From: Ralstonia sp. ASV6
Lineage (GTDB): Bacteria; Pseudomonadota; Gammaproteobacteria; Burkholderiales; Burkholderiaceae
Reading direction: 5' to 3'
Assembly: GCF_016429285.1 (NCBI RefSeq)
Contig: NZ_JAELUI010000013.1
Coordinates: 1 to 56,149 of the forward strand
DNA length: 56,149 nt
In this document: positions 1 through 4,936 of the stretch, in pieces
Layout: every line of letters begins with the position of its first letter
How positions within the stretch are numbered: position 1 is the stretch's first letter
Program-made: the position numbers and the translations under genes
Notes under the pieces: model-generated
The model's input: only the letters and a program-made list of their open reading frames with translations
What the model was told of the DNA's origin: nothing
Databases searched by the model: none

Positions 1-758
1 CCGACTGCCAACCCACCTGAACAGCCGCATTGACGAGCTGCTTCCTCACAATTGGCGCCTGGCGCGCTGAAGATACTCTCACTCACAACGCAGTTCGACT
101 GGCAAGGTGGTATCGCCGGACGCTTACAGCATAGCGACAACAATGCGTGGAATATTTCAGCTACGCGCCCATCTGGCCAAGCATAGTGAAGCGCAGGGGC
201 TCGGGTAATGTCGGTTCCGCATCGGTGGCACCTTGTAGGTGGATGAGCTTCCAACTGCGATTTGTGCCCAATGTCGCCTCGAAAGAATGCGATCGGCGCA
301 TCGCACACATGACAGGCATCTTGCATGAGAACGCGATGGACATCGCATTCCGTATAAAAGGCTAGGCACCAGCGAGCGCGAAAGTACGGTACTGCATCGG
401 TCGAGAGGCAAGCCGGGCAATACTGCATCCCATGACATTTCCGCGTTCGATGGTAAACACCGGCTGGAAGTAGCCAGCGCGTAGCTCCATACAGATTGAT
501 CTGCTCGAATACGAGGCTCTCGAACTTGTGTAGCGAGGTCGCCTCGATAGTGCTTTGAGGTATGCCAGAAAGTTCAGACAGCCCCGCCAGAAGCCAACTG
601 GGCGCAAGTACGTCGATATTACGGTTCCAAACCTGCTTGTCTCGTCCAAAATAGCTCTGGCAAAAGCTATGCACCTTGAGGCCGTTGCCGTGCGCCAACC
701 GAAGCATCCACGAAGACAACAGCTCGTCGGGACGGGGATGCGGATGGACGGGAAGCAA
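1..758 (-). CDS. tniQ: TniQ-family transposition target-selection protein (partial, C-terminus off window)
   Basis: The reading frame is open from 758 to the window edge (252 codons). The N-terminus LLPVHPHPRPDELLSSW followed by RLAHGNGLKVHSFC is the typical TniQ start. A zinc-binding pattern follows: CPAC at about residues 114-117, C138/H141, CHVC at about 149-152 and CHRC near 175-178. TniQ/TnsD proteins pick the target and connect it to the AAA+ ATPase. I chose a TTG start at 756-758, 22 nt after tniB; no ATG exists in this frame near that point. An ATG overlapping the tniB stop is in another frame and closes after three codons, so a small frameshift at the start cannot be excluded. Confidence 0.85.
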   Translation of the reverse strand, partial: MLPVHPHPRPDELLSSWMLRLAHGNGLKVHSFCQSYFGRDKQVWNRNIDVLAPSWLLAGLSELSGIPQSTIEATSLHKFESLVFEQINLYGATRWLLPAGVYHRTRKCHGMQYCPACLSTDAVPYFRARWCLAFYTECDVHRVLMQDACHVCDAPIAFFRGDIGHKSQLEAHPPTRCHRCGTDITRAPALHYAWPDGRVAEIFHALLSLCCKRPAIPPCQSNCVVSESIFSAPGANCEEAARQCGCSGGLAV

Positions 759-780
759 CCACGCAACGGCTAACGCGACA

Positions 781-1680
781 TCACACGCGCGCGACAGCCG
801 CCCTCCGCTCTGCCGGCGGGACGTAACCGCATGAATCCAGCGCGCGGGCGTCAATCCGTTCCGTCTTCCGCTTGATCGCGTAAATCGCCGCAGCATTGAG
901 CAGCTTAGATAGCTCGCCGATCGTACCGCCGGTCATGTGTAACAGACGAGACGCCATCGCTCGTTCCGTCAGATTCGATGGAAGTGCCAGCGGTATTACC
1001 CGCTCGAAACTTGAAAGTAATCTCGCATAGTCGGCGTTGAGCTCCCAGCGGGGCAGCACTGCGGGAGTAAAGCGGTTTTGTAGTTGAAGGTCCACCTGGA
1101 CAGCGCGAACGGCATCTCCCGTTCCCACACCGACGAGCGGCACTCGCAACTCGTTACCAACGTACTTGAGAACGTTCAGAAAATTCCGCTGCTTCAGCAA
1201 GGGCCCCGCGAGAAGATGGTGAATCTCATCGATGACAATCATGCCAAGATCGACCTGCCGCAATATACCTATCGTCCGGTCTCGCTTTTGATCAGTCGAT
1301 TCGGATGGACGTAGCCGCTGAAATAGGCGGCTAAGGATCGCGTTGTAAAAGCCTCGTTCATCTGGCCCTGGTGGTGCTTGCACGTAAAGGACCGGAATGC
1401 GTACCGCTTCACCGTTTGGGTTGGGATCGGCCGGATGCAATGCGAGGAAATGCTCAATCAACACCGTCTTTCCGTTGTTGGTCTCACCAACGAGGAGCAT
1501 GTTCGGCATGCGCGCTTGGCGCGGATGCCGCAATAGCAGCTCAAGGTCATCGAGCACTTCCTGTGCTCGTGGGTAACCAATCCAACGAGGTTTCAGGATA
1601 TGTTCGATGCGGTCCCCAAGAGGCAAGCACAGCTTTTCCGCTGCCTTGGGAGTCAGGTGCGTAAACTCGGCCGCGCTCAT
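781..1680 (-). CDS. tniB: TniB/TnsC-type AAA+ transposition ATPase
   Basis: A 299-residue AAA+ ATPase. Walker A is GETNNGKT (residues 65-72, Lys71) and Walker B is MIVIDEIHH (Asp151, Glu152). The TniB/TnsC family forms an ATP-dependent filament on target DNA that connects the target selector (TniQ) to the transposase. The start ATG overlaps the tniA stop by 4 nt (ATGA), so the two are probably translationally coupled; tniQ follows after a short gap. Function is assigned from motifs and from the four-gene context. Confidence 0.92.
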   Translation of the reverse strand: MSAAEFTHLTPKAAEKLCLPLGDRIEHILKPRWIGYPRAQEVLDDLELLLRHPRQARMPNMLLVGETNNGKTVLIEHFLALHPADPNPNGEAVRIPVLYVQAPPGPDERGFYNAILSRLFQRLRPSESTDQKRDRTIGILRQVDLGMIVIDEIHHLLAGPLLKQRNFLNVLKYVGNELRVPLVGVGTGDAVRAVQVDLQLQNRFTPAVLPRWELNADYARLLSSFERVIPLALPSNLTERAMASRLLHMTGGTIGELSKLLNAAAIYAIKRKTERIDARALDSCGYVPPAERRAAVARV

Positions 1681-3554
1681 TCGGCCTCCAGGATGTCGTC
1701 AAAGGGACGAATACTGGTCCCTGGGTAGCTGTCCACTGCCTCCGCTTGAGGCTCTATGTTGCCAGCCATGCCCGAAGATTTGGCTTGCCTCCATTGCTTC
1801 CTGCGCTGTTCATTTCGCCGCGCCTGCTTTGCTGCTCGCGTCTTGCCTAGTGCGCCGTTCTCAATCTCGCGCATCTTTCGGATGCCCTCGAAGATCAAAT
1901 CCTCGTTGGGCTGTAGAAAATCATCCTCCTCAATACGTTTAAGCGCGGCGCGCAACTCCCACAGACTTATTGCTGGTCGAGATGAATCCCGATAGGGGAC
2001 CACTACGTAGCTGCGCGTTGTTGGATCCAGGAAGTAGACAACACTGATATCACGCGGGTCCCGCGCGAAAATGAACCGCCGCTTGAGCTTTGGATTGACC
2101 TCATCACGTGCGTGAATCCAGGGCCTGAGTACGTCGGCGTAATAGTGAATGTTGTCGATGAGCACGCCATACTCTTGAATCGTGCGCTCAACATAGGGAA
2201 GAAAATCCAAACGCAGCCTGTCCTCATCCGCAACGAGTGACGGAAGACCGATGCCCGGTCGGTCGGGCGTGCCGAGGATGGATTGCTCGAATAGCTTGAT
2301 TGGCGGCACATTGCTGATGCCCTTATGCACCCGCTGGTGGTAGACCTCCACAACGAATGTGGTGAACCACCGCTCGAACTCGTCCAGCGTCATGCTCGCG
2401 GTGTCATCAGAGCCATAATCCCCGCGTTCTCCGACATTGGAGAACGTTGTACCTGAAACCGTGTGGGTCTTGCTCATGAACGTCCGGAAGGCCCGCTCGA
2501 CATGTCCCCCATAGTTGGGCTGCCCCTTCGGGCGGTACTCAAGGATGATTCCATGCTCGTTACAAGCTCGCTCAAGCATGGAGCCGCGAAATTCCTTCGC
2601 GTTATCAACATGGATCTTCCTCATCCGTCCCCATATTGGCCAGGGTGTGCTTAGTTCGCATTTTGCGAGCCACATATCCTTCTTGAGGATCGCGCGCGCG
2701 ATACAAAGCCCAGCTGAAAGAGCGCCCGGCGGGTCGAGCGTGACGTAAAACCCAGCGATCATTCGCGAGTAGACATCAATTGCGATCGTCAGATAGGGGC
2801 GACCGATCGGCAGCCTATGCGTATCGTCAACCAGAATCAAATCGACTGGTGTGTGGTCGATTTGCACCACAGCGAGCGGGAAATCTGCACCTGGGAACTC
2901 GCCTCTGATCGGTTGGAACCGCTCGCGCGCGGCCTTGTGGCCGAGTCGCTTAGACATGAGCAACTTCTCGGAAAGCAGGGCGATGCGATTGCGCACTGTG
3001 TTTGGATGGGGCTCGGGAAGATTCTGCTCCCGGCAGCGCCGCGCAACTTCAAGGCACGTTTCGCTAACAGGTCGCCGCTGTTTCGTGAGATGGAATGTGT
3101 TGATGACCTCGTCGATCAGCTTTTCGATCTCTGGCGCTAAACGCCGGCTACCCTTGTCTTGCCGCCCGCTGCGCAACAAGGCCGAAACTCGGCCTGTCTC
3201 CTCATATCGCTGGATCCACCGATAGATCGTAGCCGGGTTCCGGCCAGCCGCATCTGCCACTGCGCGGACTGCTTCCGCTGATCGGCTCGAACCAGCTTCG
3301 AGCAGTGGAAGGATCATCTCGTACCTCGTCCATGCCTCCCGCCAGTCCTCGTCCTCAACGAGCATCAGATCCTGGCGCACAAACGTCTGCTCGACTGCTG
3401 CAGGTACAAGCTCGCCAATCGGCGCGAGATTAGTCTCGCCAGTTGCTGCGTCGCGAACAACGGCCTGCCCTAGATTGGCCAGGTCCAGAACAATATGGTC
3501 TCGATTGTGCCAACGCACCGGCACACCTGGAATCAGTCGCCCACGTGCCGGCAT
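1677..3554 (-). CDS. tniA: TniA/TnsB-type DDE transposase
   Basis: A 625-residue Mu/TnsB-type integrase. Helix-turn-helix-like segments lie at about 85-200. The catalytic core carries Asp233 (QIDHTPVD), Asp317 (IHVDNAKEF) and Glu353 (YGGHVERAF), a DD(35)E spacing. A Mu-type C-terminal region follows, ending in a basic tail. The protein cuts and joins the 3' ends of the transposon. Its start lies 22 nt inside the tnsA-like gene and its stop overlaps tniB. All catalytic residues are present, so the gene appears intact. Confidence 0.94.
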   Translation of the reverse strand: MPARGRLIPGVPVRWHNRDHIVLDLANLGQAVVRDAATGETNLAPIGELVPAAVEQTFVRQDLMLVEDEDWREAWTRYEMILPLLEAGSSRSAEAVRAVADAAGRNPATIYRWIQRYEETGRVSALLRSGRQDKGSRRLAPEIEKLIDEVINTFHLTKQRRPVSETCLEVARRCREQNLPEPHPNTVRNRIALLSEKLLMSKRLGHKAARERFQPIRGEFPGADFPLAVVQIDHTPVDLILVDDTHRLPIGRPYLTIAIDVYSRMIAGFYVTLDPPGALSAGLCIARAILKKDMWLAKCELSTPWPIWGRMRKIHVDNAKEFRGSMLERACNEHGIILEYRPKGQPNYGGHVERAFRTFMSKTHTVSGTTFSNVGERGDYGSDDTASMTLDEFERWFTTFVVEVYHQRVHKGISNVPPIKLFEQSILGTPDRPGIGLPSLVADEDRLRLDFLPYVERTIQEYGVLIDNIHYYADVLRPWIHARDEVNPKLKRRFIFARDPRDISVVYFLDPTTRSYVVVPYRDSSRPAISLWELRAALKRIEEDDFLQPNEDLIFEGIRKMREIENGALGKTRAAKQARRNEQRRKQWRQAKSSGMAGNIEPQAEAVDSYPGTSIRPFDDILEAE

Positions 3555-4222
3555 GTAAGCCCCCCCTTCGTCCAGATGCGCGACCGCATGGTAATTGGCT
3601 CGGATAAATCACAGCCGATCTCAAAGTTTGCGATCAAGTTCCACAGGCTAGGCAGAGCTTCAGCACGCTTCCATACGTCTGGGAACAATGACGTGATCAA
3701 CGCTTCTGGATCCGACTCGCGCAAATCCGCGAGCTTGTCCAGCATCCGCATTTTGTCGTTGACGCTACCCGGCGCCGCCAAATAACCCGCCAAGAACCGG
3801 ACGTTGGCCAAATATGGCGTACGTATCTCGTTCTCGGTAAAAACTCGAAAATCCCACCCTCGCTCGGAGGCATAGCGCTTCGCAACCCTGAACTTCGTAA
3901 GCAACGGTCTCCAGTTCGCTCGGAAGTCTGCCCTGTACTTCACTTCACATAAAACGTGGCGCATATCCCTAGCCGGCTCGATGTCCCGCCGATACTCGAT
4001 CAAGCCGTCCGGGGTGTATCTGGATCGGCGGCCATCGTGATCCAGATAGCGGATAGTCAAAGGCTGCGGGGAATAGGTGAGGATATTTTTGTCGAAGCGA
4101 ATCAGCTCCATGAAGTCTCGCTCCAGGGATGATTCGTACTGCCCTAGATTGGGCACGGTGCCCGTCATGCAACGAGAACTCAGGCCAATGCGGCGGACGG
4201 GAGAGGGATTCTGGATGCTCAT
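3533..4222 (-). CDS. tnsA: TnsA-type transposon endonuclease
   Basis: A 229-residue protein matching the TnsA endonuclease family: Glu34 (YESSLERDF), Asp72 (YTPDGLIEY), and Glu93/Lys95 (CEVKYRADF) form a restriction-enzyme-like active site. In Tn7, TnsA cuts the 5' ends while TnsB cuts the 3' ends, giving cut-and-paste transposition rather than a cointegrate. It is the first gene of the operon; its ATG is 55 nt inside the transposon end. The C-terminal half probably contacts the ATPase, as TnsA does with TnsC; that is inference. Confidence 0.9.
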   Translation of the reverse strand: MSIQNPSPVRRIGLSSRCMTGTVPNLGQYESSLERDFMELIRFDKNILTYSPQPLTIRYLDHDGRRSRYTPDGLIEYRRDIEPARDMRHVLCEVKYRADFRANWRPLLTKFRVAKRYASERGWDFRVFTENEIRTPYLANVRFLAGYLAAPGSVNDKMRMLDKLADLRESDPEALITSLFPDVWKRAEALPSLWNLIANFEIGCDLSEPITMRSRIWTKGGLTCRHVGD

Positions 4223-4282
4223 TCGCGTCTAACCATGTAAGGTTGGCCGATTCTCGCACTTAGCGTTGGAATTTACAGCGGT
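4223..4282. repeat. Transposon terminal segment and presumed 5-bp target duplication
   Basis: The 55 nt between the tnsA start and 4277 are non-coding and should hold transposase-binding sites. The terminal bases on the plus strand are TTTACA at 4272-4277. GCGGT at 4278-4282 restores the glycine-rich comM reading frame (..G-G-N-T-P-R-P-G..) and is the presumed duplicated target. The partner copy is beyond the left edge, so the duplication is not proven here. Confidence 0.7.
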
Positions 4283-4936
4283 AATACGCCGAGGCCCGGC
4301 GAGATCTCGCTGGCACATCAAGGCGTTCTATTTTTGGACGAACTCCCCGAGTTCGAGCGCCGCGTCCTCGAAGTCCTGCGCGAGCCACTGGAAACCGGCC
4401 ACATCACCATCTCGCGCGCTGCGCACCAGACCGACTTTCCTGCCAGCTTCCAGTTGATTGCCGCGATGAACCCTTGCCCGTGCGGCTATCGCGGCCATCC
4501 GCTACGCGCGTGCCGCTGCACGCCAGACCAGGTGGAGCGCTACCAGGCACGTATCTCCGGTCCGCTCCTCGATCGCATCGACGTGCAGATCGAAGTGCCA
4601 ACGCCTTCGCAGGAAGAATTGCTGGATGGCCCGCCAGGCGAGCCGACCGCCGATGTGGCCGAGCGCGTATCGGCGGCGCATGCCCGGCAACTCGCGCGGC
4701 AAGGCAAACGCAACGCACTGCTGGCTGGCCACGAGATCGATCTGCACTGCGCCCGCACGGATGCTGCCGATGGCTTGCTGCGTCATGCCATGACGCGCTT
4801 CTCGTGGTCCGCCCGCGCCTATGCACGCGTGCTCAAGCTGGCCCGCACCATTGCTGACCTGACCGGCGACGCGCAGATCGATGCCGTGCACGTGGGCGAG
4901 GCGATCCAGTATCGGCGTGGGGTGAAGGCAGACTAG
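4278..4936 (+). pseudogene. comM: ComM/YifB Mg-chelatase-like ATPase, 3' fragment cut by the transposon
   Basis: An in-frame C-terminal half of ComM: residues read GNTPRPGEISLAHQG, then Walker B LFLDELPEFERR, CPCGYRGHPLRACRC, and the sensor region GPLLDRIDVQIEVP, ending in a normal C-terminus. Walker A and the N-terminal Lon-like domain are absent because the Tn7-like element interrupts the gene upstream. ComM is a hexameric helicase that helps branch migration during natural transformation, so this copy should be non-functional. The stop overlaps the convergent marR stop. Confidence 0.93.

What the first reader, a model, noticed from the sequence alone, without database searches (positions are those of the whole stretch)
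1..4936. Tn7-like element with TniQ seated in the comM hotspot
TnsA, TniA, TniB and TniQ genes end at 4277 in ..TTTACA, and comM resumes in frame after GCGGT. As I recall, Tn6022/AbaR islands of Acinetobacter use the same spot (ACCGC = complement of GCGGT). Finding it in what looks like Ralstonia suggests that TniQ recognises the conserved comM glycine-rich Walker region across phyla, and that unseen cargo lies to the left. It also should remove a transformation helicase, which could protect the element from being cured by transformation.
Basis: partly seen in the sequence, partly recalled or inferred. Interest (0 to 1): 0.75.

Follow-up and report, generated by a model that had tools for sequence, protein, structure and literature searches.

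The report
comM-inserted Tn7-like transposon without TnsF
This is a jumping DNA element carrying phage-defence genes that has landed inside the transformation gene comM; it belongs to a lineage that hits comM without the guide protein known to do that job, so how it finds its target is an open and testable question.

Summary
The window starts inside a Tn7-like transposon (tniQ-tnsC-tnsB-tnsA) ending at 4277 in TTTACA, with the 3' part of comM from 4278. Contig C23 of the same genome holds the 5' comM part, the other end, a tnsE-like gene and defence cargo (IetAS, type XI retron, caspase-helicase). The target duplication matches 4 of 5 bases. tniQ is split by an IS66-family insertion, so this copy is probably crippled. 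At E 0.01 a TnsF profile finds nothing in this genome or in 30 genomes of comM-inserted relatives, but hits all 6 positive controls. TnsB places this element in a TnsF-free clade; grouping with TnsF elements is rejected. TnsF-free comM elements occur in Pseudomonadota and Bacteroidota; 9 of 15 examined show perfect 5-bp duplications in comM. TnsB, TnsC and TniQ were the only proteins in all 18 elements clustered, so TniQ is the likeliest comM reader (inferred). Many relatives' TniQs carry a C-terminal helix-turn-helix that this copy lacks. New variant of a known kind.

The parts
1..127 (-). right-hand end of an IS66-family insertion sequence inserted in tniQ (the other end is at L013 18758-19962 on contig C23)
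   Evidence: sequence: inverted terminal GTAAGCGTCC / GGACGCTTAC and 8-bp duplication AGCATAGC on both sides; IS66-type matches on C23 (Pfam LZ_Tnp_IS66 8.2e-6); end sequence recurs on contigs C561 and C69
128..135 (.). 8-bp target duplication AGCATAGC of the IS66-family insertion
128..782 (-). tniQ, N-terminal part (interrupted; the C-terminal part is at L013 18400-18757). Start codon not settled; homology begins near 770
   Evidence: Pfam TniQ E 1.2e-27; profile A2 match 15-770, and a weak match (E 0.01) to the C-part on C23
781..1680 (-). tnsC (TniB-type AAA ATPase)
   Evidence: Pfam TniB E 1.3e-69
1677..3554 (-). tnsB (DDE transposase, 625 aa)
   Evidence: Pfam Mu-transpos_C, HTH_29, rve
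3533..4222 (-). tnsA (229 aa)
   Evidence: Pfam Tn7_TnsA-like_N and Tn7_Tnp_TnsA_C
4223..4246 (-). second TnsB-binding-like site of the right end
   Evidence: rank 7 of 152,130 with a matrix from other elements
4254..4277 (-). terminal TnsB-binding-like site and transposon tip (TGTAAATTCC... read on -)
   Evidence: rank 3 of 152,130
4278..4282 (+). right copy of the 5-bp target site, GCGGT (left copy on C23 reads GCGGC)
4278..4936 (+). 3' part of comM (Walker B region GVLFLDELPEF and C-terminal domain)
   Evidence: Pfam Mg_chelatase, Mg_chelatase_C; homologues 83-90% identical in the 15 other genus genomes searched

Best explanation
A Tn7-like transposon (at least 18.5 kb held: 14,248 bp on contig C23 and 4,277 bp in the window, plus an unassembled IS66 interior) inserted in the glycine codons of comM, tnsA end towards the Walker B part. 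Shown: both ends, both comM parts, tnsABC, a split tniQ, a tnsE-like gene at the far end, defence cargo, no TnsF detected. Inferred: TnsB/TnsA cut and join the ends, TnsC links them to the target complex, and in this lineage TniQ itself reads comM near Walker B (in many relatives probably through a C-terminal helix-turn-helix, in a few with a further tail), with the TnsE-like protein serving a second route. This copy lacks the tail and its tniQ is split, so it is probably no longer able to target comM.
For: Genes; both comM parts and ends; TnsB sites. TnsF profile: 6 of 6 positive-control genomes hit (E 9.6e-55 or better; none is in the profile), 0 of 31 others at E <= 0.01, own included. TnsB tree: own in a 13-row TnsF-free clade (100/99), 10 of 13 in comM with own; own + TnsF rows as one clade rejected (p-AU 3.4e-6). 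9 of 15 TnsF-free relatives' elements have a perfect 5-bp duplication inside comM. Of 18 elements clustered (16 TnsF-free, 2 with TnsF) TnsB, TnsC and TniQ are in all 18 and TnsA in 16; TnsE-like clusters in 8 and 3. TniQ model of a relative (L122, pLDDT 88.9) ends in three helices; best PDB match TnsD 8v32 (E 4.6e-6, TM 0.36 by query). The helix-turn-helix tail profile hits 19 relatives' TniQs at E <= 1e-6 (13 of them built it) and none of the large non-comM clade at E <= 0.01. TnsE-like family: the best seven PDB fold matches of a relative's model are TnsE C-terminal domains.
Against: No binding or transposition data. This copy's TniQ has no helix-turn-helix tail, nor do the Bacteroidota TniQs in A5, most of which also sit in comM. 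The tail also occurs in L077 (beside a umuC-like gene, by eye), L108 and L144, not shown in comM. Own duplication is 4 of 5. 6 of 15 elements gave no duplication in comM by my script. Eight of the 31 genomes gave weak TnsF-profile matches between E 0.01 and 1, read here as noise (best 0.0118, G416). A second TniQ next to an AAA protein exists on contig C149. PMC10293859 takes a small TniQ as the sign of an additional selector.
Confidence: 0.6

Rival explanations
1. The ancestor's comM reader was a longer TniQ: a helix-turn-helix plus recombinase-like tail fused to TniQ, as in L068, L070 and L108, which this copy has since lost. The insertion was then made by a TnsD-like fusion, not by a short TniQ.
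For: Own TniQ N-part groups with L068, L070 and L108 (81/89, not starred); own C-part is most like L068 (29% against 13-21% for the other ten rows); L068 and L070 sit in comM; own tniQ and the retron gene end 4 bases apart, stops included.
Against: No trace of the tail in the element; nine other members of the clade sit in comM with 375-394 aa TniQs that have only the helix-turn-helix; the tail's kinship to recombinases is not significant (XerD E 1.1).
Confidence: 0.25
2. TnsF was supplied in trans by another element (Tn6022-type or Tsy) at the moment of insertion, and the TnsF-free elements exploit it.
For: PMC10293859 suggests that elements with a short TniQ and no partner may recruit selectors in trans; own insertion is at the same codon position as TnsF elements.
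Against: TnsF found in 0 of 31 genomes at E <= 0.01, own included; TnsF-free elements occupy comM in many genera of two phyla, at positions that vary by a few nt, unlike the fixed position in the nine readable TnsF elements.
Confidence: 0.12
3. The TnsE-like protein is the comM reader.
For: Present at the far end of this element (L013 5793-7595) and in many relatives.
Against: Also present in relatives not in comM (for example L076, L078, L082, L092) and clustered in only 11 of 18 elements; TnsE is described as structure-specific, aimed at replication forks of conjugative plasmids (PMC10293859).
Confidence: 0.06
4. An ordinary member of the Tn6022/AbaR family.
For: Same gene set apart from TnsF, same site, same orientation.
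Against: No TnsF; clade with TnsF rows rejected; TnsB about 43% identical to Acinetobacter elements against 52% to the nearest TnsF-free one.
Confidence: 0.03

Closest known systems
Tn6022 (AbaR backbone), PMC10293859
   Same: TnsA, TnsB, TnsC, TniQ, TnsE; insertion in comM at the same codon position and orientation as TnsF carriers; comM disrupted
   Different: Tn6022 uses TnsF with TniQ; here no TnsF was found and TnsB belongs to a different clade
Tn7-like transposons with defence cargo (PMC8649781)
   Same: TnsABC + TniQ element with defence genes as cargo
   Different: that paper's text does not hold the whole word comM; TnsF-free comM attachment is not described in the passages I saw
Tsy (PMC10293859)
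   Same: inserts in comM
   Different: tyrosine recombinase element with an active TnsF-like protein and no Tn7 genes
Type I-B1 CAST with a comM crRNA (review PMC11406308, passages)
   Same: Tn7-like element that adopted comM
   Different: uses a guide RNA and Cas proteins; no Cas match among the 8 cargo proteins scanned here

Membership tests
Tn7-like transposon | TnsA endonuclease, TnsB DDE transposase, TnsC ATPase, TniQ in one operon | tested here: met
   tniQ is split by an IS66-family insertion
Tn7-like transposon | TGT...ACA ends with repeated TnsB sites | tested here: met
   (four sites in the top 10 of 152,130 positions)
Tn7-like transposon | 5-bp target duplication | tested here: inconclusive
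   own 4 of 5 (GCGGC/GCGGT); perfect in 9 of 15 relatives examined
Tn6022 family | TnsF gene next to tniQ | tested here: not met
   0 hits in own genome at E <= 10; 6 of 6 positive controls hit
Tn6022 family | TnsB groups with TnsF-carrying elements | tested here: not met
   p-AU 3.35e-6 on 36 of 90 rows
Tn6022 family | insertion in comM at the glycine codons | tested here: met
Tn6022 family | TnsE gene on the opposite strand | tested here: met
   L013 5793-7595+; profile E 2e-216 (own sequence is part of the profile); fold of a relative matches TnsE C-terminal domains; no sequence hit of own in Pfam, none useful of its family in PDB
CRISPR-associated transposon | Cas effector genes in the element | tested here: not met
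   8 cargo proteins against PADLOC; the IS66 interior is not held
Tsy | YRec + HTH + active TnsF, no Tn7 genes | tested here: not met
   Tn7 genes present, no TnsF

The most novel reading that the evidence does not exclude
A TnsF-independent lineage of Tn7-like transposons, spread over Pseudomonadota and Bacteroidota, reads comM directly with TniQ; comM has thus been adopted as attachment site by several different target selectors, and 'short TniQ without partner' does not always mean a missing selector.
Probability: 0.5. Interest if true: 0.7.

Novelty: new variant of a known kind. Interest (0 to 1): 0.56.

Why it matters
PMC10293859 reports many Tn7-like loci whose TniQ seems too short to choose a target and that show no partner, and proposes selectors in trans. 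Here is a set of elements without TnsF that share one precise target (comM), several with both ends and perfect 5-bp duplications, in genomes where TnsF was not found. That makes the question testable with a small reconstitution. It also suggests that breaking comM is favoured repeatedly by mobile DNA, in line with the published idea that it limits transformation.

Tried and rejected
Tn6022 membership: rejected. A conserved extra gene in TnsF-free comM elements: not found; clusters in three or more elements were TnsA/B/C, TniQ, the comM parts, TnsE-like and, in five Bacteroidota elements, a protein that looks by eye like a resolvase. TnsE by sequence: no useful PDB hit and no Pfam hit for own; settled only by the fold of a relative. 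Simple repeat search at the ends gave nothing useful. Host name: the plasmid search gave no clear genus. Pattern search and a Pfam scan of a 33-aa stretch led nowhere.

Rows dropped or relabelled: of 95 TnsB sequences 5 were dropped before the 90-row tree, near-duplicates or second copies; L104 was labelled comM there and corrected afterwards, since its comM is intact elsewhere in the locus; trees used 53, 57 and 36 rows chosen by hand. Of 413 relatives the scan kept 80. The list of 18 Bacteroidota rows was typed from the tree.
Full report
Observation. The window is the whole contig C82 of a 5.9-Mb draft genome in 718 contigs. On the minus strand it carries tniQ (cut), tnsC, tnsB and tnsA (Pfam). 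The sequence ends the element at 4277 (TTTACA), reads GCGGT at 4278-4282 and continues in frame through the 3' part of comM to 4936.

The unseen half. A search of the same genome with the Pfam family of the ComM N-terminus found the 5' part on contig C23. It ends ...GTCGGCGGCGGC and is followed at once by TGTAAGAACC, so the other end of the element starts at C23:43214. The two 5-mers are GCGGC and GCGGT, 4 of 5. In the other 15 genomes of the genus searched, the site could be read in 14; the closest (90% identical) reads GGC at the variable codon and one of the 14 reads GGT. A matrix built from the ends of 8 other elements, own not used, placed four sites of this element's two ends at ranks 1, 3, 7 and 10 of 152,130 positions.

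Cargo. From the 5' comM side: a tnsE-like gene (L013 5793-7595), a 1001-aa protein with caspase and DEAD-helicase domains, a 169-aa protein with no match in PADLOC or Pfam at E 0.001, an S8 protease and AAA ATPase pair matching IetS and IetA (E 1.5e-39, 6.2e-78), a HAD-type hydrolase and a reverse transcriptase-trypsin protein matching the type XI retron (E 5.1e-164). Own TnsE-like protein has no Pfam hit, and its family profile no useful PDB hit, by sequence; the predicted structure of a relative (L076, pLDDT 78.9, 28% identical to own in A4) has TnsE C-terminal domains as its best seven PDB matches, the first at E 3.9e-4.

tniQ is split. A TniQ profile matched the window (15-770) and, weakly (E 0.01), C23:55914-56210. 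Between them lie the two ends of an IS66-family element: GTAAGCGTCC from L013 18758 and GGACGCTTAC up to window 127, with AGCATAGC repeated on both sides. Its end sequence recurs on contigs C561 and C69, which explains the contig break. The element held is 14,248 + 4,277 bases plus the missing interior of the insertion sequence.

What guides it? PMC10293859 (passages, and sections 8 and 15 read) reports that Tn6022 targets comM through TnsF, which binds near the Walker B motif, with TniQ as the bridge, and that removal of any of TnsA, B, C, TniQ or TnsF impaired transposition. A profile of five TnsF sequences gave nothing in this genome at E <= 10. In 37 whole genomes it hit all 6 positive controls, none of them in the profile, at E 9.6e-55 or better, and none of the other 31, own included, at E <= 0.01; eight of these 31 gave matches between 0.0118 and 1. 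The 31 are own, 25 genomes with a TnsF-free element in comM and 5 with the opposite orientation.

Relatives. A scan with four TnsB sequences kept 80 loci of 413. In 31 of 80 a 3' comM part lies at the tnsA side; 6 of these carry TnsF and 25 do not. Five more carry a 5' comM part beside tnsA, i.e. the opposite orientation. Of 18 Bacteroidota rows 13 sit in comM. In a 53-row TnsB tree this element sits in a 13-row clade (100/99), all TnsF-free, 10 of 13 in comM with own; TnsF-carrying elements and Bacteroidota elements are elsewhere (the 90-row tree agrees). On that tree the comM state needs at least 8 changes and TnsF 2. Holding own together with the TnsF rows is rejected (p-AU 3.35e-6), and so is one clade of all comM rows of the usual orientation (2.3e-10), on 36 rows. 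So comM has been adopted, or kept while guides changed, in several lineages. Of the three clade rows without comM, L066 and L071 end just beyond tnsA and cannot be judged, as also L088 and L118 outside the clade; L077 sits beside a umuC-like gene, by eye.

Junctions (by eye). In nine of ten TnsF-carrying comM loci the junction could be read, and all nine are at one codon position, which this element shares. Readable TnsF-free ones lie from 7 nt upstream to 2 nt downstream of it (L073 and L124 could not be read so). Of 15 TnsF-free relatives' elements examined, 8 in the usual orientation and 1 inverted (G432) show a perfect 5-bp duplication in comM, the eight 0 to 5 nt upstream of own's position; in the other 6 the script found none in comM. 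Proteins of 18 elements were clustered (own, these 15 and two TnsF carriers): TnsB, TnsC and TniQ are in all 18, TnsA in 16, TnsE-like in two clusters of 8 and 3.

TniQ. Alignment A5 shows a C-terminal addition of about 45 residues in its 13 Pseudomonadota rows of own's clade and neighbours (three of them not shown in comM), absent from its 12 Bacteroidota rows and from its 6 rows of the non-comM clade. AlphaFold models it in L122 as three helices (residues 334-346, 353-360, 364-380; whole model pLDDT 88.9); the best PDB match of the model is TnsD 8v32 (E 4.6e-6, TM 0.36 by query). As a profile the tail hits its 13 members and six further TniQs at E <= 1e-6 (L108, L070, L068, L144, L111, L110), L106 at 0.0096, and nothing convincing in the element here (best E 0.27). 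Own TniQ N-part groups with L068, L070 and L108 (81/89), whose TniQs of 516-541 aa carry the helix-turn-helix and a further tail that looks to me like a degenerate tyrosine recombinase; by sequence this is not significant.

Mechanism. Shown: anatomy, ends, target, lack of TnsF, clade. Inferred: TnsABC act as in Tn7; TniQ reads comM in this lineage, since it is the only selector candidate found in every element clustered; the helix-turn-helix is a likely reading head in part of the lineage, while the Bacteroidota TniQs and this copy must do without it, or this copy lost it after insertion. This copy, with tniQ split and no tail, is probably stuck. The loss of ComM should lower transformation: PMC7508600 (title, abstract and outline seen) reports raised transformability after AbaR removal with comM repaired, and PMC10293859 suggests that comM disruption limits transformation of other mobile elements.

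Literature. Whole-word searches for comM with TniQ (4 papers), with Tn7-like and Bacteroidetes (0), with Tn7-like transposon and defense (2), with Tn7 and Ralstonia (3, the one opened using 'comm.' for a personal communication) and a prefix search for TnsF with comM (421 papers, 20 listed) showed no description of a TnsF-free comM family; of the four comM-TniQ papers I opened two, for passages and sections. Subscription papers and preprints outside the library were not searched.

Host. No call names the genus. Two 'same family' genomes have contigs of the same lengths as named contigs of Hydromonas duriensis and Formosimonas limnophila (119,644 and 236,622 bases), which fits Burkholderiaceae (family placement recalled). 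Ralstonia is likely but unproven.

Noticed in passing
L180, L181 (G015, same genus): comM of another genome of the genus is split about 43 kb apart at a different place (nt 174-179 of the 3' part present on both sides) by an island whose edge gene looks, by eye, like a tyrosine recombinase.
   Followed up: partly
L068:6580-8169, L070:12871-14496, L108:12808-14358: TniQ proteins of 516-541 aa with a helix-turn-helix and a recombinase-like tail (not significant by sequence), a possible TnsF-like fusion of separate origin.
   Followed up: partly
L101:12688-15609: 973-aa open frame with TniQ and TnsF-profile matches, i.e. a TniQ-TnsF fusion, in a comM-inserted Sedimenticola element.
   Followed up: no
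L105, L107, L110, L111, L138: A clade of Pseudoalteromonas, Planctobacterium and Marinomonas elements sits in comM in the opposite orientation (duplication AAACC in G432) with a 140-193 aa ORF after tniQ.
   Followed up: partly
G000:C149:24304-24576 (L059): A second TniQ-like protein (431 aa) beside an AAA ATPase in the same genome, probably of another transposon.
   Followed up: partly
L057 (NZ_CP104448.1): A 4.09-Mb record listed as a plasmid is of chromosome size.
   Followed up: no
L045, L046, L054: TnsF-free relatives outside comM: near lipA/lipB-like genes (L045, L046) and a tldD-like gene (L054), by eye; their sites were not worked out.
   Followed up: no
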